A DNA stretch of 64,000 bases from a virus: IMG/VR virus record IMGVR_UViG_3300031718_000003, positions 1-64,000 of that record. One strand, given 5' to 3'. Position 1 is the stretch's first letter, and every line of letters starts with the position of its first letter. The position numbers were made by a program, and so were the translations under genes. The notes below the pieces were generated by a model. The model ran no database searches, was not told where the DNA came from, and was given only the letters and a program-made list of their open reading frames with translations. Below, piece after piece: positions 7,177 to 62,885 of this stretch.

Positions 7177-7229
7177 AACAGGAGGGACTGGCCATTGGCA
7201 AGCGGTATCCCGCGGCCACCGGCCAGGAA

Positions 7230-7277
7230 CAGGCGCAAACGGCGGATGGTCGAGAGCGCACGCTACCGACCCCGAAG
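7230..7277 (+). repeat. start-associated hairpin element
   Basis: Clear two-part hairpin: GGTC...AGCG-CA-CGCT...GACC inside the conserved ends. Right-pointing member of the pair. Confidence 0.9.
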
Positions 7278-7350
7278 ATAAAAGGAAACAGCTTGTGTTA
7301 ATTGAAGAAATTCAAAGCGACGACTGCTCTTCTTCCCTTATTTTTTTCGC

Positions 7351-20949: not shown

Positions 20950-21053
20950 AGATCCATCCAAATAAAAGACGGGGCCTTGCCTGGCAATTGATCGCGGATG
21001 GCTCGTTCGGACACTCTGCGCCGACGGCAGGTAGGGCGGAAGCCTAACGTCAC
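20943..21053 (-). CDS. possible 36-residue peptide
   Basis: GTG start overlaps the terminase stop (GTGA) and the stop overlaps the next ATG. Product MTLGFRPTCRRRRVSERAIR... is basic. Tight coupling is the only support. Confidence 0.35.
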   Translation of the reverse strand: MTLGFRPTCRRRRVSERAIRDQLPGKAPSFIWMDLW

Positions 21054-22480
21054 GTCATCCAGCTCCGATCCCCGCCTGGCACATGGACAGCCGACGGCCT
21101 CGGCTGCGGCTTCGATGTCAAAGTTTTCAGACCCGTGGTGGACAGGACGTACCGGACGCAATCCATCAAATGGTCGTTTTTCTTCACGATCTTGCCCTTC
21201 TCGTCCCGATGATAGCGCGAGATCTCGCGGCGAAAGTTCTGAAGATGCTCCTGAACCTTCAACCTCCCCGATACCAGCCGCTCCCACACGATTTGAATGC
21301 CGGTCTCGACAGCGTTCTCACAGGGATGGAGCATCAGACCGGCCTTGCGGTAATGCTCCATCAGAGAACGGCCATCCACCTGCGAGCTTTGGAGGCAGCC
21401 GGGATCGACTACGCCATGTATCCACTCGCCCCTGGCGCGGATCGCCATCGCGTGGGAAGCTGGCTCGCCGGCGCTTTGATAGTGTTCGTCGTAGAGGACC
21501 AACTGCCCGTTGCCGGGATTCTCGGCCGCCCACAAGGCCGCCGTGAGCCGCCAGCCCACATCGAGTGCATAGACGCGCCGCCAGGAGGCGGGAATGGGCG
21601 CGGTCTTGATCAGGAAGTCCTCTTCCGGCAGGGGATAGATGGCGCCCGCGCCGAGCGACGGCTCGCCGAGTGTCCGCGCTTTGATCTGGTAGGCGGGAGT
21701 CGTGGCAATCAGGATGTCCTTCTCCGCCTGCTCCATGTGCGGAACGTCCTTCCAACCGGCCTGTATCCAGAATTTGTGCGCCGCGGCGCCTTCCTTCGGC
21801 TCCAGAAATCCGGTTACAACCTCACTCATGCCCTGGAGCGGCGTGAAAGTGGTGTAGAGAATCCCGCGGGTTGTGACGGTGCGAAACAGGATCTCGGTAT
21901 AGATGTCCTCCGGAGGCTCTTCGTCGAGCCATGCGAAGTCCAGTGAGACTCCCTCGAAGCTCTTCCGGCCCTGCTCGTAGGTCTTCAGCCCAACGCTCGA
22001 CCAGGCGCCAGAGACGTGCTTTACCCAGATCGTCTCGATCGATCCGCTGAGACCTGAGCGGCGCGGAAGCGTCTTCACGATCCGGTCCGCCGGGATCATG
22101 CCAGTGCCCTGCGCTTCGAGTGTGCCTGCGAGTTTGAACTGCACGATATTGCGAGTGCTCTCCGAGGTCGTGCCGCACGCCCAGCCCGCGGTAGGTCCAC
22201 TGAAGCGCTTCCCCGTCCACCACACCGGATAATTTCCAGTTAGATGACAGGCGGTCTCGTACGCGCCCGCATCTGACTTCCCGATGCGATTCGCGGCGCA
22301 GAATAATCTTTCCTTGTACGTCGCGCCGGCGGCGAAGAATTCGAGCTGCTTCGGATAAAGCGCGCGCCGGCGCGGCCCCGTCTCCGGGAAATATCCCCGC
22401 CACTTGTTGCGCTTCTGGAAGTCCAGGGCCGCCTGAATGGTGCCCAGATCGACCATGTCCGGTAAGCTGACAACGGTCAC
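21050..22480 (-). CDS. terminase large subunit
   Basis: 476 residues from the GTG at 22480, which has GGGAGG upstream and overlaps the previous stop (TAGTG). The protein pumps DNA through the portal and cuts it. ATPase motor: ERLFCAANRIGKSDAGAYET (Walker A-like) and LDFAWLDEEPP (Walker B plus catalytic Glu). Nuclease domain: YALDVGWRLTAALW, GVVDPGC and a C-terminal KKNDHLMDCVRYVL supplying the acidic residues. Size fits the P22 gp2 class. Lies between terminase small and portal. Confidence 0.92.
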   Translation of the reverse strand: MTVVSLPDMVDLGTIQAALDFQKRNKWRGYFPETGPRRRALYPKQLEFFAAGATYKERLFCAANRIGKSDAGAYETACHLTGNYPVWWTGKRFSGPTAGWACGTTSESTRNIVQFKLAGTLEAQGTGMIPADRIVKTLPRRSGLSGSIETIWVKHVSGAWSSVGLKTYEQGRKSFEGVSLDFAWLDEEPPEDIYTEILFRTVTTRGILYTTFTPLQGMSEVVTGFLEPKEGAAAHKFWIQAGWKDVPHMEQAEKDILIATTPAYQIKARTLGEPSLGAGAIYPLPEEDFLIKTAPIPASWRRVYALDVGWRLTAALWAAENPGNGQLVLYDEHYQSAGEPASHAMAIRARGEWIHGVVDPGCLQSSQVDGRSLMEHYRKAGLMLHPCENAVETGIQIVWERLVSGRLKVQEHLQNFRREISRYHRDEKGKIVKKNDHLMDCVRYVLSTTGLKTLTSKPQPRPSAVHVPGGDRSWMT

Positions 22481-22902
22481 TAGCCTCCCGAGTCCGCAAT
22501 CGCCTCGCGAATCTGTTGCGCCGCGAGGCCGGGCCACTGCGCTTCCGGCATCCGCACGTACGTCCATGCGTCGAGGCCGGCAATGCGCCACTGCCCGCGC
22601 GGCGTCTGGTAGAAATATTGCTCCGCGTTTGCCGAGTAGGGTCCCGTTCCATAGGGATTTTCAGCCTTGATCTGCCCGTTCCCGAACGTTTCAGCCATAT
22701 ACTGGGCCGTCGCCTCGGTCGCAAAATACATGGGATTCAGGCCCGTCGATTGCCCCGTCTGTGAATTGGTTACCGCCGGCACGATGAACGTAGGGACAAA
22801 CGGAGGCGCAACCGGAGCCGCGCCCGGCGTGGGAGCAGGCGAGGGCGCAGGTCCGGAGATCTCAAATGGTCCCCAGGTGGGGGGCGGCGTGGAATTACTC
22901 AC
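22480..22902 (-). CDS. hypothetical phage protein, Pro-rich N-terminus
   Basis: 140 residues from GTG at 22902. The first 45 residues are Pro/Ala-rich; then YFATEATAQYMAETFGNGQI...PRGQWRIAGLDAWTYVRM. The position just before terminase large suggests a packaging or structural accessory role; no family recognised. Confidence 0.65.
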   Translation of the reverse strand: MSNSTPPPTWGPFEISGPAPSPAPTPGAAPVAPPFVPTFIVPAVTNSQTGQSTGLNPMYFATEATAQYMAETFGNGQIKAENPYGTGPYSANAEQYFYQTPRGQWRIAGLDAWTYVRMPEAQWPGLAAQQIREAIADSGG

Positions 22903-22982: not shown

Positions 22983-23167
22983 ACTCGAGGTGCAGTTTTC
23001 CCTTGCATTTCCACTGATTCCCATTTAGACTGTAAAGCGTTGATAGAGCGCAGTTTATGTGAAAATATTTCATTGAACACTTATCGCCCCCCGATAAGTG
23101 TTCCGTTCGATTTCCCAATGTTTTGGCACTTTGTCGATTTGCGCTCGGCTGGGCATAGAAAAACAGG
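22983..23167 (-). repeat. 185-bp duplicate of part of the replication gene
   Basis: Nearly identical to 40777-40961, inside the initiator-like gene. It carries the same reading frame fragment (GNRTEHLSGGDKCSMKYFHI) without the rest, so it is a dead copy or a duplicated regulatory site. It includes the AACACTTATCG palindrome at 23076-23102 and an AT-rich run. The gap 22903-23222 holds this, a hairpin element and a solitary CRISPR repeat. Confidence 0.9.
23076..23102. promoter_or_regulatory. CACTTATCG palindrome
   Basis: AACACTTATCG / CGATAAGTGTT around CCCCC, a perfect inverted repeat shared with four other loci in the window. Confidence 0.75.
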
Positions 23168-23185: not shown

Positions 23186-23222
23186 GTTGCAATATCCAGC
23201 TCACGGAAGAAGGTAGTGAGAC
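23186..23222 (+). CRISPR. solitary CRISPR repeat A
   Basis: 37 bases, GTTGCAATATCCAGCTCACG then GAAGAAGGTAGTGAGAC, differing from the main array consensus at few positions and closest to the repeat at 61960-61996. It abuts the stop codon of terminase small. Confidence 0.92.
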
Positions 23223-23804
23223 TCAGCTTCTGCTTTGCGCTCTCATCAGTTTCTGCTTTGCGCCCTCAAGCTCCTCTGCTGTAAATAGCTCCGCGAGCGC
23301 CGTAACGGCTACTGGGATCGCTTGGCCGCCTGGTCCGCTCAGTTCTTTGCGATCCACCCAGTCGCCCATCTCGTGCGCCACCTGTTCCTCGTGGAGGCGC
23401 ATCTCGCGCAGTATCCCGGTATCGACGAGGAACTCTTCTACGACTTGGCTCTCATCGCCCGCGCCGATCGACTTCAGTTGGCAGATAACCAGCCCGGTGC
23501 TGCCGCCTGGCGCTTTGCCGGCCAGCTTCGCGGCACGCTCACGGACGACCTGGTCCATGAGTGCGAGCCGCCGGTTCAGCCGCGCGAGGCGAACTTCCTT
23601 GACCGCAGCGCCGGACTCCTTCACGCGCTTGCGCCATTCCCCGACCCAGTGGTCCACCTCGCGGGCGAACTCCGGGGTGGCCTTCCAGCGTTGGATCTGC
23701 CGCGCGCTCACTCCGAGCCGCTTGCCGATTTCATCGTTCGTCAGGCCGCCGAGCGACACCATGCGCGCGGCTTTGTAACGCGTTTTATCCCAGGCCCAGT
23801 CCAC
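23223..23804 (-). CDS. terminase small subunit
   Basis: 193 residues, GTG start at 23804. N-terminal helix-turn-helix GLTNDEIGKRLGVSARQIQRWK (about residues 19-40) binds the packaging site; the rest is a long helical oligomerisation region. It is first in the virion operon, ahead of terminase large. The last codons contain a 23-base tandem duplication (CTTCTGCTTTGCGC twice on the plus strand). Bases 23698-23734, inside the HTH, match spacer 5 of the CRISPR array at 36 of 37 positions. Confidence 0.82.
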   Translation of the reverse strand: MDWAWDKTRYKAARMVSLGGLTNDEIGKRLGVSARQIQRWKATPEFAREVDHWVGEWRKRVKESGAAVKEVRLARLNRRLALMDQVVRERAAKLAGKAPGGSTGLVICQLKSIGAGDESQVVEEFLVDTGILREMRLHEEQVAHEMGDWVDRKELSGPGGQAIPVAVTALAELFTAEELEGAKQKLMRAQSRS

Positions 23805-24037: not shown

Positions 24038-24060
24038 ATTCCCATTTAGACTGTAAAGCG
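24038..24060 (+). repeat. 23-bp partial copy of the duplicated module
   Basis: ATTCCCATTTAGACTGTAAA plus GCG, identical to 23017-23039, here joined directly to a solitary CRISPR repeat. Confidence 0.88.
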
Positions 24061-24097
24061 GTTGCAATATCCAGCTCACGGAAGAAGGTAGTGAGAC
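24061..24097 (+). CRISPR. solitary CRISPR repeat B
   Basis: Identical to solitary repeat A over all 37 bases. It lies three bases beyond the stop of the 24101-24499 gene, so both solitary copies follow stop codons. Confidence 0.92.
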
Positions 24098-24100
24098 TTT

Positions 24101-24499
24101 TCAGACCTTGGCAGTTTCCGCCGGCAGCATGGGAAGTATGATCGGCGCCGTATCTCCCGGGCTCAAAGCAACGAGTTTGGCCATTCCCTGTCGCAGCAAT
24201 TCCATGCGAATCGTTTCCATCAGCACCATCTGATGTGTCGCGGCTTGGCGGGCGAGCTCGGCAACCTCCTTGGCGGACGTCACCGCTGTTGCGTTGACAA
24301 CGGTCGCGGCTTCGAGACGGTTCATTTGGTCCTTCAGGCTCGAGCCGGTATCCGTTTTGAATTCCATCGCCATCGCGAGAAGCACGGGATGCAGCCTGGC
24401 GACCACGCCGAGAAAACTAATCAGCTTCCAGAGCGCGGCAAAAATAGCGATTGTGCTTACAGCGCAGCCAGCGACCGCGGCTAAGGTTACCCAGTTCAT
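24101..24499 (-). CDS. membrane-anchored helical protein
   Basis: 132 residues: an N-terminal membrane segment (WVTLAAVAGCAVSTIAIFAA), then a long helix with coiled-coil character (SSLKDQMNRLEAATVVNATA). Such proteins in phages may be spanins, holin partners or exclusion factors; nothing decides. Stop and start overlaps link it to 24496-24654. Confidence 0.6.
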   Translation of the reverse strand: MNWVTLAAVAGCAVSTIAIFAALWKLISFLGVVARLHPVLLAMAMEFKTDTGSSLKDQMNRLEAATVVNATAVTSAKEVAELARQAATHQMVLMETIRMELLRQGMAKLVALSPGDTAPIILPMLPAETAKV

Positions 24500-26866: not shown

Positions 26867-26961
26867 GGCAGCGCTTCGCCCCTTTCATTGCAAGCACGAT
26901 CCGGTCATTTGGATATATCGGCAGGGAGGGGTACGTTGTCCCAAAATCCAAATGCTTATGG

Positions 26962-27010
26962 CTTCGGGGTGAGTCGTTGTCGCACTGAAGCCGTCCGCCG
27001 TTTGCGCCTG
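26962..27010 (-). repeat. start-associated hairpin element
   Basis: Left-pointing copy between the protease gene and the NusG-like gene. Confidence 0.85.
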
Positions 27011-27065
27011 ATCACTCGAGCGCGCAAAGAACCAGGGCGCGGAGGGATAGCCAAAGCGGTAAGCG

Positions 27066-27910: not shown

Positions 27911-28555
27911 ATGCCATCCAAAACCAAAAACATTGACCAAAACAGCCCTATTTCAGCCCCAGTCGAACAGAATTGTCAAACTGTACGCCTCAGACGCCGA
28001 AGTTCGCCGGAACCGCCGAAACACCTCTCTCCTACGCAGCTCGAGGATCTGTTCCGCGTGATCTACTCGAAACGCGACGAGGCCATCTTTCGCATCGTCT
28101 ATTGCAAAGCCCTGCGCGCGAGCGAAGTCGGCCGCCTGGAACTCAGTGACTGGGATGAACGCGAGAAGATGCTGAGCGTACATCGACTAAAAGGATCTCG
28201 CTCGGCGGCCTTCGCGATGCACGACAAGGAGCTGCGCGCGCTGCGCGCCTGGCTAAAGGTCCGCGGCCGAGCGCCGGGCCCGCTGTTTCCCAGCCGCAAC
28301 CATCGCCCAATCTCGCGCATTCGCATCTGGGAACTGATGCGGCAGTACTGCAAAGAAGCTGGCATCCCCATGCGTCTCGCACATCCGCACGCGCTCAAGC
28401 ACTCCCGCGGCTCACACTTACTCGAGGAGACGGGCAAGATCCACGTGGTGCAGGACGCGTTAGGACACAAAAGTATCGCGTCTACGATGATCTACGCGCA
28501 AGTTTCCAACCGCGATCGGACGGAGGCCATAGCGCTCAATCGCAATAAATACTGA
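27911..28555 (+). CDS. minimal tyrosine recombinase / integrase
   Basis: 214 residues. The catalytic domain is complete: RASEVGRL (first Arg), RLKGSRS (Lys), HPHALKHSRGSHL (HxxR), LGHKSIASTMIYAQV (second His and the Tyr nucleophile). The usual N-terminal SAM-like core-binding domain is absent; only about 40 residues precede the catalytic part. It could integrate the phage, resolve multimers or need a host partner. Transcribed rightward, away from the virion genes. Confidence 0.85.
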   Translation: MPSKTKNIDQNSPISAPVEQNCQTVRLRRRSSPEPPKHLSPTQLEDLFRVIYSKRDEAIFRIVYCKALRASEVGRLELSDWDEREKMLSVHRLKGSRSAAFAMHDKELRALRAWLKVRGRAPGPLFPSRNHRPISRIRIWELMRQYCKEAGIPMRLAHPHALKHSRGSHLLEETGKIHVVQDALGHKSIASTMIYAQVSNRDRTEAIALNRNKY

Positions 28556-35181: not shown

Positions 35182-35239
35182 TGATTCTCCTTACGAATAA
35201 ACTATATAAAGCACTATATAACAAGTTGAAGCATCATGG

Positions 35240-35288
35240 CTTCGGGGTCGGTCAGGCTCTGCCGTCAGCGATCCGCCGTTTGCGCCTG
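35240..35288 (-). repeat. start-associated hairpin element
   Basis: Inner CGGC-AGA-GCCTG arm pair; overlaps the end of the gene at 35265-35480, adding QAQTADR to its product. Confidence 0.85.
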
Positions 35289-35480
35289 GTCCGTCGATGG
35301 CCCTGAAGAAAACGCTTTTCCGACTAACCGCACGGCAGGCTCAACACATCCGGGCGACTGCAGTTTGTGCTCGTAATAGATTACGGTCCGCAGGGTGTGT
35401 CTGGTCGCTTCGCTGAATTCTACCGAGCCGGAAGTTCTGCAATTAGCGCAACGCCACCGTTGATGAAGACGGGGAAGCAT
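35265..35480 (-). CDS. small protein with element-coded tail
   Basis: 71 residues. RWRCANCRTSGSVEFSEATR has one CxxC; the last seven residues, QAQTADR, are the translated hairpin element. Not recognised. Confidence 0.55.
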   Translation of the reverse strand: MLPRLHQRWRCANCRTSGSVEFSEATRHTLRTVIYYEHKLQSPGCVEPAVRLVGKAFSSGPSTDQAQTADR

Positions 35481-40236: not shown

Positions 40237-41434
40237 GGGGTTCCTTTCTCATTTGCCGCGCGTAGAGAATCTGCATCGCTTCCTGGTTTTTACCCGCTGC
40301 CCTTCCGCCGCGCGGATCCGGCGGAATTGACTCCCATTGCCGGTTATCGATCATGTCGCTCAGGGTGGGTTTGCAGAATTGCCAGCCTTTTATATCCCAG
40401 TACACGGCCCATGCAGCGATGCCGGATTCAATGTCATCGAGACGCACGCCGAGTCTGACCGCATCGCGAATCATCGTCTGGCAGGTATCGCGGCTGGCCC
40501 GGCGTCCAGCGCCGGTTTTTTTCCAAGAACGAAAGAGCTTGTCGAAGCGTGTCCGAAATTCCGGGTCGGAGAGTGTAGGCCGAGGGGGGGGGAATTCGCC
40601 GCCCCCCGCTTGCGGGGGGTAGGGGGGTTTCTCCTTAGTAGTTACAGTAGTCACATCCTTATATGTAGTTATCGGGGGGAGAAAGTGTTCGAGGGTCTTT
40701 TCGATAAGTGATGCGACCCCGGCTTCGATCTCTTTTTCGATAAGTGATCGCTTATCGATTTCGATAAGTGATGGTAACTCGAGATGTAGTTTTCCCTTGC
40801 ATTTCCATTGATCCCCGTTTAGACTGTAAAGCGTTGATAGAGCGCAGTTTATGTGAAAATATTTCATTGAACACTTATCGCCCCCCGATAAGTGTTCCGT
40901 TCGATTTCCCAATGTTTTGGCACTTTTTCGATTTGCGCTCGGCTGGGCATAGAAAAACAGGCGTGTAGGAGAGCCGGGGCCACCTCTCGATCCACGGCGA
41001 ATCTCACCGTCTTCGGCCATCGCCGTCAGCTCTGCGGACACGTTCGGCAATAGAATCCCCGTGTCTCTCGCGGCGTCCTGTGGCCCGGCGGGGACTTTCG
41101 CCAACTTGCCTTGCCGGTTGACGAGTTTCATGGCTGTCCGGCCGTGAAAGCGCGGCACGCCGGCCTTTGTGATGGAGTGCTGAATACTTCCGATGCCAAC
41201 CGTGGCCAGAGTGAACCAGGCGCGTAACCGCTCCCGCCGGGAGCATAGGGGACTGCGCATGATGTATTCCGCCCGGCGGCGGATGTCCTGAAAATAGCGT
41301 CCGGCGTCAAGCCCTAGATCTTTCGCGAGCACTTCATCGCGAGCGAGCCCCAGGCGCCGTAGCCAACTGGGATGGTCGGGCCCTTCTTTACCGACGGGTT
41401 TTCTTGCCTGGCGTTCCGCGGCGGAACCGAGCAT
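40229..41434 (-). CDS. replication-initiator-like protein containing iterons
   Basis: 401 residues. A basic helical N-terminal half with a winged-helix-like SPLCSRRERLRAWFTLATVG and SAELTAMAEDGEIRRGSRGG, then a hydrophilic linker coded by repeated CACTTATCGA units (SLIEIDKRSLIEKE...SLIEKTLE), then a helical C-terminal domain (DTCQTMIRDAVRLGVRLDDI, WQFCKPTLSDMIDN). Lambda O has the same plan: a DNA-binding initiator whose gene contains the origin iterons. Family not confirmed. Confidence 0.6.
   Translation of the reverse strand: MLGSAAERQARKPVGKEGPDHPSWLRRLGLARDEVLAKDLGLDAGRYFQDIRRRAEYIMRSPLCSRRERLRAWFTLATVGIGSIQHSITKAGVPRFHGRTAMKLVNRQGKLAKVPAGPQDAARDTGILLPNVSAELTAMAEDGEIRRGSRGGPGSPTRLFFYAQPSANRKSAKTLGNRTEHLSGGDKCSMKYFHINCALSTLYSLNGDQWKCKGKLHLELPSLIEIDKRSLIEKEIEAGVASLIEKTLEHFLPPITTYKDVTTVTTKEKPPYPPQAGGGEFPPPRPTLSDPEFRTRFDKLFRSWKKTGAGRRASRDTCQTMIRDAVRLGVRLDDIESGIAAWAVYWDIKGWQFCKPTLSDMIDNRQWESIPPDPRGGRAAGKNQEAMQILYARQMRKEPRG
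40701..40896. other. candidate replication origin (iterons plus palindrome)
   Basis: Four TCGATAAGTGAT-type units between 40701 and 40773, partly arranged as inverted pairs, then 100 bases on the AACACTTATCG/CGATAAGTGTT palindrome at 40870-40896, next to AT-rich GAAAATATTTCATTG. All inside the initiator-like gene. Confidence 0.6.
40777..40961 (-). repeat. 185-bp segment duplicated at 22983-23167
   Basis: In-frame part of the initiator-like gene; this is probably the parent copy, since here the frame is intact on both sides. Confidence 0.9.
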
Positions 41435-43423: not shown

Positions 43424-43922
43424 CGAGCATCGCGCACAAACGCCGGTCACCCCCAACCGGAGCGCCTTCCAGCTCCATCTCGAGGAATCGGAGCACCCTA
43501 TCCCGCGCGCCCTCGTAGTCGAACGGAACAATGTGCTCGGGATCGGCGCGTAGTTCCCGGACCGCTATCGGCCGGATGGCCACAGCCCATTCATAGCCCG
43601 TGGCACGCACCTGGGCGAGATCGCGAAACTCGCGCCGCTCGCGGTCGTAGCGCCACAGTACCCAGAGATATTCCCGCCCGCCAGCGGACCCGGCATATTC
43701 GAGCAGAATCGCCGGCTCCGGGAGTTCCACTCGCGGGATGGCGTCGCCAGGCCGTAGTACTTTACCCTCGAAACCGAACCCGTCGAACGCTTTCGGATCG
43801 ACGCGGGACAGTACTTTGATCCAATCGCCCGCATGGCGTTTCCGCGCCGACCGCGGCAGCCGCACATCGTCTTCGCGGCAGATCGCGCGTCCGCGGATAA
43901 AGGGTTTGGGACTTATATACAT
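43395..43922 (-). CDS. hypothetical phage protein
   Basis: 175 residues from ATG at 43922. YLWVLWRYDRERREFRDLAQ and HIVPFDYEGARDRVLRFLEM. Its start overlaps the TnpB stop region, so the insertion of tnpB may have removed its native leader. Confidence 0.6.
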   Translation of the reverse strand: MYISPKPFIRGRAICREDDVRLPRSARKRHAGDWIKVLSRVDPKAFDGFGFEGKVLRPGDAIPRVELPEPAILLEYAGSAGGREYLWVLWRYDRERREFRDLAQVRATGYEWAVAIRPIAVRELRADPEHIVPFDYEGARDRVLRFLEMELEGAPVGGDRRLCAMLDDSLLARIA

Positions 43923-45031
43923 GACTCCCCGAGCCTCTGTATAGATTCTGCCGATGCTCCGACAGCGCTCATCCCGAGCGCAAGGTGATTCAAAGCTGCG
44001 TTGTGATCGCGTCCAAGCGTTAGCCCGCAGGCGCACGCGTGCGTTCGTTCGGCGAGCGTCTTAGGAACGATCTTTCCGCAGCCAGAACACTTCTGAGATG
44101 ACCGCCATGGATTGACCGGCACAGCCCAACGCCCAGCTTGTTCGGCTTTGTACGTCGTGCACCAGATCAATACTCCCCAGGCAGCATCCATGATCGACTT
44201 TGCAAGATTCGACCGCGCCATGTTGCGAATCGTTAAATCCTCATAGGCGATCAAATCGTAGTTTGAAACCAGCCACTTTGAAACGTGATGAATGTAATTC
44301 AGCCGGGCATTCGCAGCTCGCTGATGAGTACGCCGCAGCGCTTCACGGGCGCGTACGCGATTCTTTGAGCGTTTCTGCTTACTGGATAGAGACCGGCTCG
44401 CCGCCGCAATCCGGCGCTCGTGTTTCCGGGTCCAGCGCGGATTCTCGATGGCCGAGCCGTCGCTGAGCGTTGCGAGTGACGTTAAACCTACGTCGATTCC
44501 AACAGGATTCGAGACGGCGCACTTATCCGGCGCGGGGCCGGCGTCGCACACTACCGATGCCGTCCAGCGCTTGCCGCCGCGCTTGATCGAACAAACCTTC
44601 GCGCGCCCTTCAATCTTCCGGCCGCCGCGCGCGCGTATATCACCAACGTTGGGAATCTTAATGGACTTCTCCCGGCACACTGGGAGACCGAACGCGAAGG
44701 AATCGTAGCGCCGCCAGGATCGGAAGCGTGGAAACCCCGGCTTTTCGCCGGCCTTGCATCTCCGGAAGAAAGCTTTGAACGCCCGGTCCAGCCGCCGTAA
44801 CGGGTCGCGTTGGATATCGCACGCCATCCACTGGAATGCCGGATCTTTACGCAACTCCGTCAGTTCGTCCTGTTGATCGCGATATGTGATGCTTTTTCGG
44901 GCCATGCGCCAAGCGTCCCGTCTCTCCTGGAGCGCTGCGTTGTATGTCTCGCAATTGTCAGTCAGGATGCGTTCCAAGGCTGCCGTTTGCGCAGCATTCG
45001 GACGAAGACGGAATTGAAATGTCCTCAGCAT
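43913..45031 (-). CDS. tnpB: TnpB RNA-guided nuclease (IS200/IS605 type)
   Basis: 372 residues. TnpB cuts DNA next to a TAM using a guide made from the element's right end. N-terminal FQFRLRPNAAQTAALERILT; RuvC Asp in NPVGIDVGLTSLATL (near 192); Glu in LIAYEDLTIRNMARS (near 275); zinc ribbon CSGCGKIVPKTL...HACACG; third Asp in LGRDHNAALNHLA (near 347). All catalytic positions are present. No TnpA is found, so it is stand-alone. The guide RNA should overlap the 3' end of the gene, toward 43900. Confidence 0.93.
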   Translation of the reverse strand: MLRTFQFRLRPNAAQTAALERILTDNCETYNAALQERRDAWRMARKSITYRDQQDELTELRKDPAFQWMACDIQRDPLRRLDRAFKAFFRRCKAGEKPGFPRFRSWRRYDSFAFGLPVCREKSIKIPNVGDIRARGGRKIEGRAKVCSIKRGGKRWTASVVCDAGPAPDKCAVSNPVGIDVGLTSLATLSDGSAIENPRWTRKHERRIAAASRSLSSKQKRSKNRVRAREALRRTHQRAANARLNYIHHVSKWLVSNYDLIAYEDLTIRNMARSNLAKSIMDAAWGVLIWCTTYKAEQAGRWAVPVNPWRSSQKCSGCGKIVPKTLAERTHACACGLTLGRDHNAALNHLALGMSAVGASAESIQRLGESCI

Positions 45032-45065: not shown

Positions 45066-45352
45066 TTATTTTCACATCCCACCAACCGTTCCCTCACGGC
45101 AAACAATACTGCTTCCACAACCGAGTGAATCCCAAGTTTCAGGTACAGCCGGCTTCGATGCGTATCAGAAGTTTTAGGTGAAATACCCATACGGAATGCT
45201 ACTTCCTTGTTGCTTAATCCATGGGCTAATAGGATGAGTACCTGGGTCTCTCGTGAGGTTAAGGATAGAACCTTTAAGATCTCGCTGCGTCCTTCTTCGG
45301 GGTGAGCCAGGAGCTGCTCCCGGCGGTCCGCCGTTTGCGCCTGTGGCGTCAT
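45035..45352 (-). CDS. LuxR-type HTH regulator with element-coded N-terminus
   Basis: 105 residues. LSLTSRETQVLILLAHGLSN...KEVAFRMGISPKT...SRLYLKLGIHSVVEAV is a GerE-type HTH. The ATG at 45352 overlaps the upstream stop (ATGA), so residues 2-25 (TPQAQTADRREQLLAHPEE) would be the translated hairpin element. The last codons lie in the tnpB-side palindrome. Confidence 0.8.
   Translation of the reverse strand: MTPQAQTADRREQLLAHPEEGRSEILKVLSLTSRETQVLILLAHGLSNKEVAFRMGISPKTSDTHRSRLYLKLGIHSVVEAVLFAVRERLVGCENKGIYIDNSRD
45295..45343 (-). repeat. start-associated hairpin element
   Basis: Best hairpin of the set: GCCGGGAG-CAG-CTCCTGGC, eight pairs. Lies inside the regulator's reading frame. Confidence 0.92.
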
Positions 45353-53606: not shown

Positions 53607-53885
53607 ATGACGAAGGCAAAAAGGCAGTCACCTCTTATCAGTTTGGCACGCGCGGCACGAAATAATCCGGGCGCGGCCTTGCAATTGGCTGCGATCAAAT
53701 ACCTGAAGGCCAAGGGCTGGAATGTGATTTTGATTGGTGAGATCGAGATTCAGACCTGGGACGCCGGAGATGCAGCCAAAGGGAAACACAAGCTGGCCGT
53801 CGGTTTCCAAGGTATCGGCGCTCAATCCTCTAGGCGCAAACGGCGGATCGGTGAGGGCAGCATCCGACCGACCCCGAAGCCATGA
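53607..53885 (+). CDS. hypothetical protein with element-coded tail
   Basis: 92 residues from ATG at 53607. AALQLAAIKYLKAKGWNVIL, IGEIEIQT; the end (SSRRKRRIGEGSIRPTPKP) is the next element read in a different frame. Confidence 0.55.
   Translation: MTKAKRQSPLISLARAARNNPGAALQLAAIKYLKAKGWNVILIGEIEIQTWDAGDAAKGKHKLAVGFQGIGAQSSRRKRRIGEGSIRPTPKP
53832..53879 (+). repeat. start-associated hairpin element
   Basis: Right-pointing, TCGGT / ACCGA arms. Followed by AGGAG and the ATG at 53899: the clearest case of an element just ahead of a rightward gene. Confidence 0.9.
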
Positions 53886-53898
53886 AGGAGACGAAATA

Positions 53899-56552: not shown

Positions 56553-58289
56553 ATGGCCGTGGAAACGAAAACTTATATCGCTTATACTTACGGCTGCCCC
56601 CAGCCCAATCACCAGGTATTTAATTATGCCTTGGCCGAGATGCGCCGCCGCAACGATCTCTGGAACAAACTAGTCGAAATAGATCGCCGATTTCGCCTAG
56701 CTTCCTGGAATATCTATGCGGATGTCCCCGAACAGAAAATCGCCGATGAGTTGGCGGGCGTGATCAGGGCGTGGCGCGAAGAACTCAAGGGCCGCCGGCA
56801 AAAGGCGCGCCGCCGCGTGGATGCCACGGATCTCGTGGAAAAGATCAAAACTGCGAAGATGGAATTACGAGTCGCCTCTAAAACCGCTAGAATTGCCCGC
56901 CGTGCGGCCATCGAACGAAACCGGGCGGCGCTGAAGACCCTGGACGAATTACGCCGGTCCGAAGTCAATAAGGCGTGTCTTGCGAGCAATCTCTACTGGT
57001 GTAACTGGGATGAAGTGCTCGCAAAATACGAAGTAGCGCGAGTTCGCGCCATGAAGGCCGGGGTACTGCTACGTTTTCATGCATGGAGCGGCGTTGGAAA
57101 ACTCACTGTGCGGTTCCAAAAAGGGCTCGCTTCCGATCTGGTGTTTGGTGGGGATACGAGATTGCAAATCGATCCCGTCAACAGTGACGCCTGGAATTCC
57201 CCGGCGCGCAGTGTCCGCGGAAAAAGTATGTATACAAAAATTCGTATACGCATGGGATCACACAATCGCAAACCTGTATGGTTCGAAGCGCCCATGGCGA
57301 TGCACCGCCCGTTGCCGGAGAGAAGCGTGATCCGCACCGCCGCGATCGCCTCCGAGCAGATCGGAGGCGTTTTGCGCTGGCACGTCATCCTAACGCTTGA
57401 ACTGCCATCTGCGCGTCAGGCGAGGATCGGTCCGGCGGTAGGTGTAGATATCGGATGGCGCTTACTGCCTGGAAGGCTGCGGGTCGCATACTGGGTCGAT
57501 GAATATGGCGGCAAAGGCGAAATCGCGCTCTCCGACTCCATTGTCTCGCAATTCGCAAAAGTACGGGATCTTGATGCAATCTTGGGAAATCATTTCGAAC
57601 TCGCAAAGGTAAAACTTGGTGCGTGGCGCGCGGGGTATTTCGAACCGCTGCCGGAATGGCTCAATCTCACCCGTATGGATCAGTGGAGAGATCAGCGCCG
57701 GTTCTATGAGCTTTGGACACTCTGGAAGGATTCCCGATTTGCTGGCGACACTTATGGATTCGATACCGTATCCGAGTTTGCCGAGCGCTACGCTCATTTG
57801 CGGAACTGGCGCGAGAACTTACAGGATCAGGTCATCGCCCGCAGGAAGGACACGTACCGGAAAGCCGTATGCGATCTGCTCCGGAACCACGGGGACGTGT
57901 TTCTTGAGAAATTCGATCTTCGCAACATCGCTGAAACACCGGACCCGGAGACGAGTCCCACAGTAGTAGTAATGGATTCGGCTCGCCGCCGCGTGATTGC
58001 CGCGCCTGCGAGTTTGCGTGAGATGCTGGTCCATAAGGGCCAGTGGATGGAGGTTCCAGCACCGGGGACCACGCAGGAATGCGCCTGGTGCGGTTATGCC
58101 GCTGCCTGGGATGCGGCCCCAAGCATACTGCATCGTTGTGGAGGATGCGGAAAGCTCTGGGATCAGGATGAGAATGCAGCAGTCAACATCCTGCGGCGTG
58201 GTTTAGCGCAGATTGGGAGGGATTGGAAGCCGGAATTCGATCCGCGAAAAGCGGACGGGATGGAAGTGGCCGAAACCGTTGCGGGTTAA
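56553..58289 (+). CDS. cas12m: miniature type V effector, Cas12m-like
   Basis: 578 residues, ATG with GAGGGAG upstream. Resembles type V-M (V-U1) Cas12m: N-terminal TYGCPQPNHQVFNYALAEMR; LYWCNWDEVLAKYEVARVRA near 145-165; RuvC-I VGVDIGWRLLPG (D299); RuvC-II DVFLEKFDL (E452); zinc ribbon C510/C513 and C529/C532; RuvC-III DQDENAAVN (D539). All three acidic positions are present, whereas characterised Cas12m proteins as I recall have a degenerate site and bind DNA without cutting. The array begins 14 bases downstream. No cas1, cas2 or tracrRNA was seen. Confidence 0.87.
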   Translation: MAVETKTYIAYTYGCPQPNHQVFNYALAEMRRRNDLWNKLVEIDRRFRLASWNIYADVPEQKIADELAGVIRAWREELKGRRQKARRRVDATDLVEKIKTAKMELRVASKTARIARRAAIERNRAALKTLDELRRSEVNKACLASNLYWCNWDEVLAKYEVARVRAMKAGVLLRFHAWSGVGKLTVRFQKGLASDLVFGGDTRLQIDPVNSDAWNSPARSVRGKSMYTKIRIRMGSHNRKPVWFEAPMAMHRPLPERSVIRTAAIASEQIGGVLRWHVILTLELPSARQARIGPAVGVDIGWRLLPGRLRVAYWVDEYGGKGEIALSDSIVSQFAKVRDLDAILGNHFELAKVKLGAWRAGYFEPLPEWLNLTRMDQWRDQRRFYELWTLWKDSRFAGDTYGFDTVSEFAERYAHLRNWRENLQDQVIARRKDTYRKAVCDLLRNHGDVFLEKFDLRNIAETPDPETSPTVVVMDSARRRVIAAPASLREMLVHKGQWMEVPAPGTTQECAWCGYAAAWDAAPSILHRCGGCGKLWDQDENAAVNILRRGLAQIGRDWKPEFDPRKADGMEVAETVAG

Positions 58290-58303: not shown

Positions 58304-58479
58304 GTTGCAATACCCAGCTCACGGGCGAAGGAAGTGAGACAATCAGTCCGGTTGGTCCCGATTCAGTCCCGATTCAGGGTTGCAATACCCAGCTCACGGG
58401 CGAAGGAAGTGAGACGATAGACACGGCAGCATCGAAAACGACACTAAATATGTTGCAATACCCAGCTCACGGGCGAAGG
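58304..58479 (+). CRISPR. CRISPR array, first part (repeats 1-3)
   Basis: Repeats at 58304-58340 and 58379-58415, and the first 28 bases of repeat 3 at 58452-58479, where the transposon begins. Repeat 37 bp: GTTGCAATACCCAGCTCACG then GGCGAAGG[A/G]AGTGAGAC, with a CTCAC/GTGAG hairpin near the 3' end. Spacers 38 and 36 bp. Confidence 0.97.
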
Positions 58480-58647
58480 GGTAGTGGGGTCTTTTGAATT
58501 TCCACCGTCTTGATTTTCAGTCATGCTGGAATTGTGATTCCTCCGGCGTTTCCTCACTTGCTGCCTCGCTTTCCCGGCGTCCCGTGGCGCTATCCGCGAC
58601 CGCTCCCGCAGGTATATCCTTGGAAGGCTCCAAGGAGAGCAAGAGCC

Positions 58648-59451
58648 ATGACGATAGCGGTCGGGGTCCTGGCAGGTGATGGGGTGGTGTTAGCAGCGGA
58701 CACGGAGTACACGTGGGGCTATCTCAAAACGAGCGGAGAAAAGATATGGACCGCTGAAGGCCACGGAGCCTTGGCCATTGCGGGCGCTGGCAATGGTGCG
58801 TACTTGTCCGCAATCGCTCAGCAGATGATTGATGCGTTTAAAGCTGCGCCGAAGACGATCTCCGTCGAGCGCCTTTACGAGAAATTCTCAGAAATCCTGA
58901 CAGACTTTCATAGCAAGCATGTCATAAGGTTCGCGCATCTCGGCAGTTCGGTCGCTATTTCGCTGCTAGTCGCGCTCCAACGAGGCAAGGAGGCGTATCT
59001 TTGGGCAAGTGAAAACGATTCCCTGGAGAGATGCGGACCCTATGCGTCCATTGGTTTGGGCTGCGAATACGCCAATGCCCTTTTGGGTGAGATGTTCGCG
59101 GGTACGGCGGTGTCTTGGAAGGCGAGCGTTCCGTTGGCTGAACGCATCGCGGCCTATGCGGTGTTTGAGACGAAAAACAACGTACGGGAGTGCGGAAAAA
59201 AAACCTCTCTCGTCGCCATCCAGAAGGGGCACATTGTGGAAACGAGCGCACAGAAGATGCTGCTCATTAATTCGCACCTCAATGCGTTTTCTGAGATCCG
59301 GATCTTGGGGACGAAATATGCTCTTGGGTTCCCATACCCCGACGCGACAAGTGCGTCAGAAAAACTCATGGCCTACTTGGGCGGATTGCGGCAAGACGTG
59401 CTCGCGATTGAAGGCCAAACCTTCGAAGGAAAAGGGCGGAGTCTTGAATAA
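58648..59451 (+). CDS. proteasome-like Ntn hydrolase, transposon cargo
   Basis: 267 residues from ATG at 58648, AAGGAG 12 bases upstream. MTIAVGVLAGDGVVLAADTE matches the start of beta-type proteasome/HslV subunits; Thr2 would be the nucleophile after Met removal, with Asp18 and later Lys expected to help. GALAIAGAGNGAYLSAIAQQ is the following strand-helix. Longer than HslV (about 175) and without a regulatory ATPase nearby. Substrate unknown. Confidence 0.75.
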   Translation: MTIAVGVLAGDGVVLAADTEYTWGYLKTSGEKIWTAEGHGALAIAGAGNGAYLSAIAQQMIDAFKAAPKTISVERLYEKFSEILTDFHSKHVIRFAHLGSSVAISLLVALQRGKEAYLWASENDSLERCGPYASIGLGCEYANALLGEMFAGTAVSWKASVPLAERIAAYAVFETKNNVRECGKKTSLVAIQKGHIVETSAQKMLLINSHLNAFSEIRILGTKYALGFPYPDATSASEKLMAYLGGLRQDVLAIEGQTFEGKGRSLE

Positions 59452-59456
59452 CCTCT

Positions 59457-60305
59457 CTAGGCGACACGGCTCAGTTCTCTCGTCTCGGACAACGCGACGA
59501 TCTCTTCGAACGACCACACATGATCCGCGATCCCGGCTGCCATTGCTGGCGTAACTCGTAGCGTCTGATGGATGCGCGCGAAGTTGTAATACATGTAGTG
59601 GAGGGCCACGGCTGCCTCGTGGTTCTCGATCTTCTTTGAAAAGCCGTTCGTCAACCGAGTGAAGCGGCGCATGGACATCCGCATTGTGAGATTCTGGCGT
59701 TCCACATAGCTCGTGCTGATATGCCTTGGTTCGGGATCGCCGAGTCGGATGATCTTCTCGGCGCCGGTGCAAACCGCAGGGCTGTACCGCTTTTGCGGCT
59801 CGGGTTCGTTGCCGAAGTATTTCACGAGCTGCGCGTAATCCACTTCGTCGGCGAAAGCATCAATCACGGCGTTGAGGTAAACTTTGTGGCCGTCCGTGGT
59901 AAGTTGGACACGATGGGCGAGTTTGCGTTCCAGAGCGGCGATGAATTCCGTGGCGCTGCCAGCTCCCCTATCGCCCACGAGCCAGCATGGAACAAGCTTG
60001 GTATCCGCGTCGATTGCGACCCAGACCCAAGCGTCGCCTACGACGCGCTCTTCGGCCATCTTCGTGGTGACGTTCTTCTGCTTGCAGCCGATATAGCTCC
60101 AGATCTCGTCACATTGAATACGTCGGCATTTCAGGTTGCGGAAGACGCGGTCCTGATAGCGGTAGCAGGCGATCCCGACCTCAACGAGGAGACGCGTCAC
60201 CGGGCGCTTCTCGTGGCCCGTCATGCGGCAGATGGAACGGATGGAATTTCCTTCGACGAGTGCGGCAATGATTCGGGCGCGTTCTCCGATGCTCAGCCTG
60301 TTCAT
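59457..60305 (-). CDS. IS1-family transposase
   Basis: 282 residues, single frame. HTH ARIIAALVEGNSIRSICRMT; catalytic DEIWSYIGCKQKNV (first Asp), LTTDGHKVYLNAV (second Asp), STSYVERQNLTMRMSMRRFT (Glu) with the basic RRFTRLTNGFSKK signature of IS1. No programmed frameshift is needed, unlike classic IS1. Intact. Confidence 0.92.
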   Translation of the reverse strand: MNRLSIGERARIIAALVEGNSIRSICRMTGHEKRPVTRLLVEVGIACYRYQDRVFRNLKCRRIQCDEIWSYIGCKQKNVTTKMAEERVVGDAWVWVAIDADTKLVPCWLVGDRGAGSATEFIAALERKLAHRVQLTTDGHKVYLNAVIDAFADEVDYAQLVKYFGNEPEPQKRYSPAVCTGAEKIIRLGDPEPRHISTSYVERQNLTMRMSMRRFTRLTNGFSKKIENHEAAVALHYMYYNFARIHQTLRVTPAMAAGIADHVWSFEEIVALSETRELSRVA

Positions 60306-60346
60306 AGGTCTATTATGCGCTAGCGCTCGCGCATAGTCAAGGGGAA

Positions 60347-60820
60347 ATGACGATGGCTAACTGGATAGATGAGTTATGCGAGGAGATTCTCCGGGATGGC
60401 CGCCACAAAAGCGTGGCGGAGGAATTGCGATTACACCGCGCCGGGGTACTGGAGCAGGAGGGCCGGTTTTTCTTTGAAGAGCTGAGGCGAGAGGTTAAAG
60501 ACGGGCTGCCGACCATAGGCACGCGCCTGGGCCTATCCCCAGCGGACCTCCGATTCGAGGGAAAGGACGATTTCTTCCAGATAACAAACCATTCTCACTA
60601 CCCAGTGGTCACCGTCAAGGCCGAATACATGCTGAAGCGGGTTTTGCTCAATATCAAGAGGAAGCAGGCTGATGTCCGCACTCCAGCGGAAGAGACGCGG
60701 GATTCTATCGATTTTTGTGTCAAGGCTGACGATGAGCTTTACTTCTGCCACAAAGGAACGACACTCCCGGGAATTGATGAGGCGGTAAAATTGGTATTCA
60801 GGCCGCTATTTTCCACCTGA
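60347..60820 (+). CDS. hypothetical cargo protein
   Basis: 157 residues, starting MTMANWIDELCEEILRDGRH. SVAEELRLHRAGVLEQEGRF and VTVKAEYMLKRVLLNIKRKQ. Not recognised. Confidence 0.65.
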   Translation: MTMANWIDELCEEILRDGRHKSVAEELRLHRAGVLEQEGRFFFEELRREVKDGLPTIGTRLGLSPADLRFEGKDDFFQITNHSHYPVVTVKAEYMLKRVLLNIKRKQADVRTPAEETRDSIDFCVKADDELYFCHKGTTLPGIDEAVKLVFRPLFST

Positions 60821-60839
60821 TCCTTCAGTGCCCGTTAGC

Positions 60840-61229
60840 CTATTCGCCGGGCTGTTTGGCTGCTTGTAGCGCTTTGCGCCGGGCCGCCGCCGATACACTA
60901 TCGATCTCAGACTGAGGCGCGCCATTAGCTTTCAACGCAACGATCCGCAAGGCCTCCGGCACAGGAATCGCAAGATTCTCGGGTTCCTGATAGAACCGGT
61001 CTACGGCTTTTACTAGCTCAACCATGCTGAGCGGTTCTGGAATGTACGGGCGTGACGGAGAACGAGCTGCCCGTAACCCATCCAGAAAACCGACTAGGTA
61101 ATTCCCCTTGTCCATGAAAACCTGCCAGTGCCGCCCGTTGCACATGCCATTCGTAAAGGGCGGAATGGCTGGCTTTTCCTGAGCTACAGAGAGCAGAGTT
61201 AACGCAAGCAGAATCAAGGCAGGTTTCAT
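60840..61229 (-). CDS. exported cargo protein, Rap1a/Tai-like size
   Basis: 129 residues. Signal peptide MKPALILLALTLLSVAQ; then FTNGMCNGRHWQVFMDKGNY...VGFLDGLRAA and a helical end. The NGxxWxxxxxxxKxxYLxGxxDG layout is common in small secreted bacterial proteins. Role unknown. Overlaps the 61226 gene. Confidence 0.65.
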   Translation of the reverse strand: MKPALILLALTLLSVAQEKPAIPPFTNGMCNGRHWQVFMDKGNYLVGFLDGLRAARSPSRPYIPEPLSMVELVKAVDRFYQEPENLAIPVPEALRIVALKANGAPQSEIDSVSAAARRKALQAAKQPGE

Positions 61230-61486
61230 CGGGGATCTTTACCCGTTTTTCCCCACCGCGCCTGCGCAGCTCGCTTGGCCGAAGCCTTGCGCTGCGCTGG
61301 GCTGAGCCTTGCGTTCAAGGTGGCCGCGCCCTTTAGCCCGCCACGCCGCCCCATTTCGCGCATGATCTGAGAGACGGTGGAGCGGTCATCGAGATCTACG
61401 GGCAGTTCGGAGCCGGTGCTCTTAGCTACGATGGATGCAGCAAACTGATTGATGTCCTGCGATTTTGTCCGCGTGCGCTTGGGCAT
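61226..61486 (-). CDS. cargo protein with GG...ARW motif
   Basis: 86 residues. MGRRGGLKGAATLNARLSPA then QRKASAKRAAQARW, the same small-motif family as 50784-50936. Unknown role. Confidence 0.6.
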   Translation of the reverse strand: MPKRTRTKSQDINQFAASIVAKSTGSELPVDLDDRSTVSQIMREMGRRGGLKGAATLNARLSPAQRKASAKRAAQARWGKTGKDPR

Positions 61487-61554
61487 GACAGCTTCAAGTA
61501 TGGCAGGTTACGGGCCAACGTCAAGCCTGTGGAAATTCAAAAGACCCCACTACC

Positions 61555-62721
61555 GGCGAAGGAAGTGAGACTAGGAAGCTGTATCCGGCTCCCCGCGTTC
61601 ACATTCGTTGCAATACCCAGCTCACGGGCGAAGGAAGTGAGACCGATCAGTGCAAGGCGTACTCGCCGAATCACAAGGGGTTGCAATACCCAGCTCACGG
61701 GCGAAGGGAGTGAGACACGAAATCGGCAAGCGGCTCGGAGTGAGCGCGCGGCAGTTGCAATACCCAGCTCACGGGCAAAGGGAGTGAGACCTAAACGGCG
61801 TTCCAGTTCCGGCGGAATGCACTCCGTTGCAATACCCAGCTCACGGGCAAAGGGAGTGAGACGTGTCAAGGCGTGGCTGAAAGCAGTCAAGCTGCTCGCC
61901 AGTTGCAATACCCAGCTCACGGGCGAAGGAAGTGAGACAGCATCACGACCGTAAGGCCGGTTGCAATATCCAGCTCACGGAAGAAGGAAGTGAGACGCTC
62001 AATCTCATGTCGCTGTGACGCCCGGATAACTGTTGCAATACCCAGCTCACGGGCGAAGGGAGTGAGACAAGATTTAGAAACAGGTTTAACTGGAAGCAGG
62101 AAGGGTTGCAATACCCAGCTCACGGGCGAAGGAAGTGAGACAATATGGTGCTGCTTCGCTTTTCAGAAGTTGCAATATCCAGCTCACGGGAGAAGGGAGT
62201 GAGACGAGACGAAAGAATCGCAGCAACAGCGGGGGTGGGGGTATTGCAATACCCAGCTCACGGGCGAAGGAAGTGAGACTATTATGCCCCTCGGCATGTG
62301 TGAAAAGACCAACCGTAGTTGCAATACCCAGCTCACGGGCGAAGGGAGTGAGACCGTTAAAAGCATAGGCTAGGGGAAGACGGATTTTCGTTGCAATACC
62401 CAGCTCACGGGCGAAGGGAGTGAGACCGGAGCATATCCCGCTGAAGGTTCTTTGGAACGGAGTGTTGCAATACCCAGCTCACGGGAGAAGGGAGTGAGAC
62501 TCGGCAGATTTCCAGCGGGACCAAAGCCCGCAGAGCGGTTGCAATACCCAGCTCACGGGCGAAGGGAGTGAGACACATCTTGAGGGTTTCACGACAGAAG
62601 AGATGCCAACAGGTTGCAATACCCAGCTCACGGGCGAAGGAAGTGAGACAAACAAGTGCCCAGGTCAACAAAAATGTTTGGGGAGTTGCAATACCCAGCT
62701 CACGGGAGAAGGAAGTGAGAC
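61555..62721 (+). CRISPR. CRISPR array, second part (repeats 3-19)
   Basis: After the duplicated 8 bases, the end of repeat 3 (61563-61571), then repeats starting at 61607, 61680, 61754, 61826, 61902, 61960, 62032, 62105, 62169, 62243, 62318, 62390, 62464, 62538, 62613 and 62685. Total with the first part: 19 repeats, 18 spacers. Spacers are 35-39 bp except two short ones, 21 bp (61939-61959) and 27 bp (62142-62168). The repeats at 61960 and 62169 carry the AATATCC variant; 62243 begins with A. Confidence 0.97.
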
Positions 62722-62885
62722 GTGGTCAACCGTTCCGAACGCAAACGGCGGACCGCTGAAGGCAGAGCCGGGCTGACCCAGGAAGAATTATGTGTGCGTT
62801 GCCAATTGGGGTCAAATGGGTCTTCATCCGGCCAGCGATCATACAAGAAAATGTCATCCTGTAAATTCACGGCATAGCTTGGCAT
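62700..62885 (-). CDS. small protein ending in the last CRISPR repeat
   Basis: 61 residues. MPSYAVNLQDDIFLYDRWPD...PFDPNWQRT is the unique part; the rest is a reversed hairpin element, and the stop lies inside repeat 19. Probably truncated or extended by chance. Confidence 0.45.
   Translation of the reverse strand: MPSYAVNLQDDIFLYDRWPDEDPFDPNWQRTHNSSWVSPALPSAVRRLRSERLTTSHFLLP
62737..62785 (+). repeat. start-associated element at the array end
   Basis: Diverged last block (GACCCAGGAAG), starting 15 bases beyond the final CRISPR repeat. Confidence 0.8.

What the first reader, a model, noticed from the sequence alone, without database searches (positions are those of the whole stretch)
61717..61753. 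Spacer 5 matches the phage's own terminase small gene with one silent difference
The 37-base spacer equals 23698-23734 (minus strand) at 36 of 37 bases. The only difference is spacer position 2, C in the spacer and T in the genome, the third base of an Asp codon in the HTH. The match is too long for chance. It suggests a spacer taken from a close relative carrying the GAC codon. The flank on the PAM side is ACG, not the TTN I recall for studied Cas12m, and position 2 is in the seed, so self-attack would be weak. This looks like inter-phage competition.
Basis: partly seen in the sequence, partly recalled or inferred. Interest (0 to 1): 0.93.

Follow-up and report, generated by a model that had tools for sequence, protein, structure and literature searches.

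The report
Phage CRISPR spacer nearly matching itself
A phage carries its own DNA-silencing CRISPR system with a guide that fits its own DNA-packaging gene except for one silent base in the sensitive start of the guide; this is best read as a weapon aimed at close relatives that spares its owner, a known trick among viruses but here with a different CRISPR type and with two lone CRISPR repeats around the matching gene.

Summary
Observation confirmed. Spacer 61717-61753 equals 23698-23734 (minus) at 36/37; the mismatch is position 2, a silent GAC/GAT difference in the small-terminase HTH; chance expectation about 1e-14. The locus is type V-M: an intact Cas12m (56553-58289) and one array, split by a 3,075-bp transposon, in a 74,759-base IMG/VR phage record. 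No relative with the matching allele was found in the IMG/VR or INPHARED copies searched, so a kin origin is inferred. But among 14 viral V-M elements, two others (a third doubtful) carry spacers 2-3 mismatches from their own genome, every one with a mismatch in the first eight bases (P about 0.01, post hoc), two with TTC PAMs. Solitary repeats recur in 5 of 14. This resembles the published SPV1/SPV2 interviral conflict (PMC6858448). Caveat: the own flank is ACG, so a relative sharing it would also lack a TTN PAM. Most likely: kin-derived spacer for excluding relatives, self spared. New variant of a known kind.

The parts
61717..61753 (+). spacer 5, near-match to own terS
   Evidence: 36/37 to 23698-23734 (-)
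23698..23734 (-). near-self protospacer; 5' flank ACG; mismatch at spacer position 2 (GAT here, GAC in spacer, both Asp)
23223..23804 (-). terS-like gene (HTH_23; PHROG terminase small subunit, weak), just upstream of terL
   Evidence: HTH_23 E 2e-7; phrog_2538 E 5e-7
21050..22591 (-). large terminase gene
   Evidence: Terminase_6N E 2e-22; phrog_2 E 3e-24
23186..23222 (+). solitary CRISPR repeat R1, abuts the terS stop codon, antisense to terS
   Evidence: 4 mismatches to array repeat; null best 15 mismatches
24061..24097 (+). solitary CRISPR repeat R2, identical to R1, 3 nt from the stop of gene 24101-24499 (-)
24038..24060 (+). promoter-like 23-mer directly before R2, exact copy of 23017-23039
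   Evidence: promoter score weak (P 0.13)
56553..58289 (+). cas12m, 578 aa, RuvC D-E-D residues and zinc ribbon intact
   Evidence: PADLOC Cas12u1 E 1.8e-102; PDB 23vw E 5.7e-110
58304..58479 (+). proximal array part: two repeats, two spacers, and the left part of the third repeat
58480..61554 (.). 3,075-bp transposon inserted in repeat 3 (8-bp target duplication GGCGAAGG, 20/20 inverted ends), IS1-like transposase 59457-60305 (-)
   Evidence: NF033558
61555..62721 (+). distal array part: rest of interrupted repeat, then 16 full repeats and 16 spacers
27911..28555 (+). tyrosine recombinase (phage integrase), suggests a temperate phage
   Evidence: PF00589 E 6e-34

Best explanation
The phage carries a stand-alone type V-M system: Cas12m, no adaptation genes, and an array read from the cas12m side. 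Spacer 5 was taken from the terS gene of a close relative that had the GAC codon. Its crRNA would make Cas12m bind that relative's terS and block its transcription (by analogy with characterised Cas12m), so that a cell already holding this phage excludes or disarms the relative. The owner's own terS is spared because it differs at seed position 2 and has ACG rather than a T-rich PAM. Shown: match, gene, effector family, handle structure, absence of Cas1/Cas2, recurrence of seed-mismatched near-self spacers in other viral V-M elements. Inferred: source in a relative, silencing without cleavage, expression of spacer 5, exclusion in cells. The two solitary repeats flanking terS are probably transcribed handle RNAs that bind Cas12m (decoy or guide); their link to spacer 5 is suggestive only.
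For: 36/37 match, one silent difference. Cas12m and V-M repeat handle; one pseudoknot pair changes on both sides in the solitary repeats and in array repeat 61960 (C10-G22 to T10-A22). No Cas1 or Cas2 in the record. In a survey of 168 spacers of 14 viral V-M elements, near-self matches occur in G013 (two spacers, 3 and 2 mismatches), G019 (own cas12m gene, 2 mismatches) and weakly G020; all have a mismatch in the first eight bases (P 0.011; 7 of 12 mismatches there, P 0.005), two have TTC at the PAM position; no spacer matched another phage's genome with 4 or fewer mismatches. Four bacterial or plasmid V-M arrays showed no self-match. Integrase present. Published precedent: in SPV1/SPV2 the orthologous loci of the spacer-carrying virus bear point mutations or deletions that prevent self-targeting (PMC6858448); phage spacers target core genes of other phages (PMC7162821).
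Against: No relative with the exact allele was found: an 18-nt core of the spacer has one IMG/VR hit, unrelated; terS has no homologue found in IMG/VR, INPHARED or beside 80 related terL genes. The Asn codon before the protospacer gives ACG; a relative so similar would probably share it and then lack a TTN PAM too. Spacer 5 lies beyond a 3-kb transposon with no predicted promoter reading into the distal array. The seed statistics are post hoc on five spacers, one of them low-complexity. Cas12m here keeps the DED residues, so silencing without cleavage is assumed from tested homologues.
Confidence: 0.55

Rival explanations
1. The spacer was taken from the phage's own terS (or its immediate ancestor) and the gene later escaped by a silent seed mutation.
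For: One mismatch, silent in terS and in the seed: exactly what selection against self-targeting would leave. No relative found.
Against: Requires the lineage to survive self-targeting until the mutation; the own flank has no T-rich PAM, so there is no need to escape if the PAM is TTN. The G013 and G019 cases have 2-3 mismatches including non-seed ones, as divergence between relatives would give.
Confidence: 0.2
2. Relic: the distal array is silenced by the transposon in repeat 3, so the near-self spacer is tolerated because it is not expressed and has no present function. (This concerns present function and can hold together with either origin.)
For: Insertion between cas12m and spacer 5 with intact ends and target duplication; no + strand promoter found at its right end; the first distal spacer lacks a complete handle.
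Against: All 16 distal repeats remain intact with paired stems; weak promoters are not excluded by a consensus scan; does not explain the origin of the match.
Confidence: 0.3
3. Own-gene regulation: Cas12m with spacer 5 tunes the phage's own terS expression.
For: Cas12m represses transcription without cutting (PMC10442227, PMC11013384); the target is a packaging gene flanked by solitary repeats.
Against: Seed mismatch and non-T PAM at the own site; Gln189, aligned to the T(-3)-reading Gln197 of Cas12m2 (PMC10442227), is conserved while the site has A at -3.
Confidence: 0.07
4. Assembly or strain-mixture artefact.
For: Metagenome contig; 37-nt repeats can mislead assemblers.
Against: The terS-flanking repeats carry a variant (GGTAG) absent from the array, so a jump through array repeats is unlikely; the spacer sits in regular register.
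Confidence: 0.05

Closest known systems
SPV1/SPV2 virus-borne mini-CRISPR arrays (Medvedeva 2019, PMC6858448; model PMC7099407)
   Same: Virus-carried spacers against close relatives, with point mutations in the carrier's own orthologous locus that prevent self-targeting; stand-alone repeats also occur in such viruses.
   Different: Those are 1-2 spacer arrays that use host Cas proteins; here a phage has its own Cas12m and 18 spacers, and the relative itself is not in hand.
Type V-M CRISPR-Cas12m of plasmids and prophages (PMC11013384, PMC10442227, PMC11656645)
   Same: Effector family, array directly after cas12m, repeat handle, no adaptation module.
   Different: Phage-borne, DED RuvC residues kept, a spacer near-matching its own packaging gene.
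Huge-phage CRISPR systems that target other phages (PMC7162821)
   Same: Phage spacers against core genes of competitors.
   Different: Smaller record, V-M effector, near-self match.
Solitary repeat units / RNA anti-CRISPRs (PMC10651486)
   Same: Lone full-length repeats in intergenic phage DNA, handle structure kept.
   Different: The phage also encodes the matching effector; two identical copies bracket one gene.
Virus Rctr197k (KX853510)
   Same: Phage with Cas12m (30% identity) and adjacent array.
   Different: No self-match among 18 spacers and no solitary repeats.

Membership tests
Type V-M (Cas12m) | Cas12m effector homology | tested here: met
   PADLOC Cas12u1 E 1.8e-102; PDB Cas12m 23vw E 5.7e-110, Cas12m2 E 2.4e-29
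Type V-M (Cas12m) | array next to cas12m with stem and pseudoknot handle ending in GAGAC | tested here: met
   array 14 nt after the stop; stem and pseudoknot pairs in all 20 copies
Type V-M (Cas12m) | no dsDNA cleavage | not testable with these tools
   RuvC reads D-E-D like clades 3/4 (PMC10442227); all homologues tested in PMC11013384 bind without cutting
Type V-M (Cas12m) | 5'-TTN or T/C-rich PAM | tested here: inconclusive
   own near-self site ACG; two near-self sites of other V-M elements have TTC; no true target known
Virus-borne CRISPR for interviral conflict | array carried by a virus | tested here: met
   IMG/VR record with terminases, portal, head genes
Virus-borne CRISPR for interviral conflict | spacer exactly matches a close relative | tested here: inconclusive
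   no such relative in collections searched, but records very near the window's own may be left out of those scans
Virus-borne CRISPR for interviral conflict | carrier's own locus altered so that self is spared | tested here: met
   seed mismatch at position 2 and non-T flank
Virus-borne CRISPR for interviral conflict | interference between the viruses | not testable with these tools
   needs experiment
Solitary repeat units / Racr | lone full-length intergenic repeat away from any array | tested here: met
   R1 and R2 34-38 kb from the array, 4 mismatches versus null best 15
Solitary repeat units / Racr | directly downstream of a promoter | tested here: inconclusive
   R2 P 0.13, R1 P 0.54
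Solitary repeat units / Racr | RNA inhibits the Cas complex | not testable with these tools
   needs experiment

The most novel reading that the evidence does not exclude
The two solitary repeats and the near-self spacer form one device: repeats placed at the ends of terS make handle RNAs that either shield terS from the phage's own Cas12m or turn the adjoining own gene sequence into guides against relatives that lack the repeat, with self spared because the repeat itself occupies the PAM position. R1, inserted between CTTTA and terS, would have had a TTA PAM in an ancestor without the repeat, but the other six solitary repeats examined do not show a TTN flank.
Probability: 0.08. Interest if true: 0.85.

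Novelty: new variant of a known kind. Interest (0 to 1): 0.55.

Why it matters
If true, Cas12m systems on phages serve kin exclusion, with self spared by seed changes. This extends a rule shown for archaeal viruses that use host Cas proteins to phages with their own effector. It gives concrete allele pairs (GAC versus GAT terS; the G013 and G019 loci) with which self/kin discrimination by a single seed base can be tested. The recurrence of solitary repeats in V-M phages (5 of 14) opens a testable question about their role beside the phage's own effector.

Tried and rejected
Search for exact relatives: an 18-nt spacer core in IMG/VR gave one unrelated hit sharing 20 nt, about what chance gives. 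terS protein, and a degenerate HTH pattern: only unrelated HTH proteins. Targets of the other 17 spacers: none in phages, plasmids or fetched loci. Repeat pattern in IMG/VR and GTDB contigs: none outside this record. Trans targets of the sequences after the solitary repeats: none beyond short seeds. Common gene context of solitary repeats in other V-M phages: none near a terminase. Proximity of near-self targets to repeats: only a weak tendency. The first genome-contig scan with a broad alignment could not run; a closer alignment gave 7 loci.

Full report
The match. Spacer 61717-61753 sits in regular register between two 37-nt repeats and equals 23698-23734 on the minus strand at 36 of 37 bases; only position 2 differs (C in the spacer, T in the genome), and its 5' flank in the genome is ACG. 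Expected chance matches of this quality for all 18 spacers are about 1.6e-14. In the frame of the terminase-small-like gene the change is GAC/GAT, both Asp, inside the HTH.

The setting. The record is an IMG/VR virus of 74,759 bases with portal, scaffold, head and terminase genes, a tyrosine integrase and Mu-Gam/Rad52-like genes. The effector is Cas12m: best PADLOC model Cas12u1 (V-U1, now V-M) E 1.8e-102, best solved relative 23vw, a Cas12m, E 5.7e-110, and Cas12m2 E 2.4e-29. Its RuvC residues read D-E-D, unlike the H-D-D of Cas12m2, but every Cas12m tested in PMC11013384 bound without cutting. There is no Cas1 or Cas2 in the record.

One array, broken. The array starts 14 nt after the cas12m stop. 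Its third repeat is split by a 3,075-bp transposon (58480-61554) with perfect 20-nt inverted ends and an 8-bp target duplication. Spacer 5 is therefore in the distal part. No + strand promoter was found at the transposon's right end, so whether spacer 5 is transcribed is open.

Solitary repeats. Two identical full-length repeats, 23186-23222 and 24061-24097, both on the + strand, bracket terS; the first touches the terS stop codon. They differ from the main repeat at four positions, but the pseudoknot pair C10-G22 has become T10-A22, so the handle is kept; one array repeat (61960) has the same variant. The 23 bases before the second one are an exact copy of part of a 185-bp duplicated element.

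Comparison. A scan with an alignment of seven Cas12m proteins found 36 IMG/VR loci; arrays follow cas12m in many of them. Whole contigs of 15 were read. Of 168 spacers in 14 elements including this one, near-self matches were: this one (1 mismatch, position 2, flank ACG); G013, two spacers (mismatches 1, 4, 22, flank TTC; and 1, 8, flank CCA); G019 against its own cas12m gene (6, 28, flank TTC); and a low-complexity one in G020 (7, 10, 29, 32, flank CGT). Apart from copies of the same contig, no spacer matched another genome with four or fewer mismatches. Every near-self match has a mismatch in the first eight bases (P 0.011; seven of twelve mismatches lie there, P 0.005), a post hoc test. In G013 the first spacer's three differences are all silent in the open frame, the second's two are not; in G019 one of two is silent. 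Four bacterial or plasmid V-M arrays, and Virus Rctr197k, show no self-match. Solitary repeats occur outside the array in 5 of 14 V-M viral contigs, against a null best of 13-15 mismatches; in G006 the stem has two compensatory changes (CTCAGA/TCTGAG to CTCATG/CATGAG, read from the sequences).

Interpretation. The pattern, spacers that fit close relatives while the carrier's own locus differs enough to be spared, was described for SPV1 and SPV2 with host Cas proteins (PMC6858448) and modelled (PMC7099407); phage arrays aimed at other phages' core genes are also known (PMC7162821). The present case fits it with a phage-borne V-M effector. The weak points are that no relative is in hand, that a relative sharing the ACG flank would not be targetable under TTN, and that the distal array may be silent. 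Self-acquisition followed by a silent seed change remains possible.

What is new. A V-M instance with its own effector; recurrence of seed-mismatched near-self spacers in viral V-M elements; and lone repeats flanking the matched gene. I do not claim that the lone repeats and the spacer form one mechanism.

Noticed in passing
window 10470-10688 (-): Group I intron (RF00028, 88.7 bits) between the scaffold gene and the major head protein gene.
   Followed up: no
window, e.g. 2733-2797, 7225-7290, 26950-27013, 35234-35297, 45293-45350, 53827-53891, 62731-62780: At least 18 copies of a ~50-nt intergenic element (CAGGCGCAAACGGCGGA...GACCCCGAAG), often just before a ribosome-binding site; no Rfam family at gathering score.
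   Followed up: partly
window 22983-23167 and 40777-40961: 185-bp duplication (97%) with a hairpin; its TTCCCATTTAGACTGTAAAGCG part recurs before solitary repeat R2.
   Followed up: partly
window 58480-61554: 3,075-bp IS1-like transposon in a CRISPR repeat, carrying a proteasome-beta-like (Ntn hydrolase) ORF and others as cargo.
   Followed up: partly
window 43913-45031 (-): TnpB-like OrfB_IS605 gene in the same phage as Cas12m.
   Followed up: no
L210 9751-9790: In a Nitrospirae contig a lone V-M repeat sits about 75 nt upstream of cas12m; candidate self-regulation.
   Followed up: partly
L113 near 11750: An IMG/VR cas12m followed by a single lone repeat instead of an array.
   Followed up: no
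L126 spacer 11791: A viral V-M array carries a spacer 2 mismatches from its own cas12m gene (TTC flank).
   Followed up: partly
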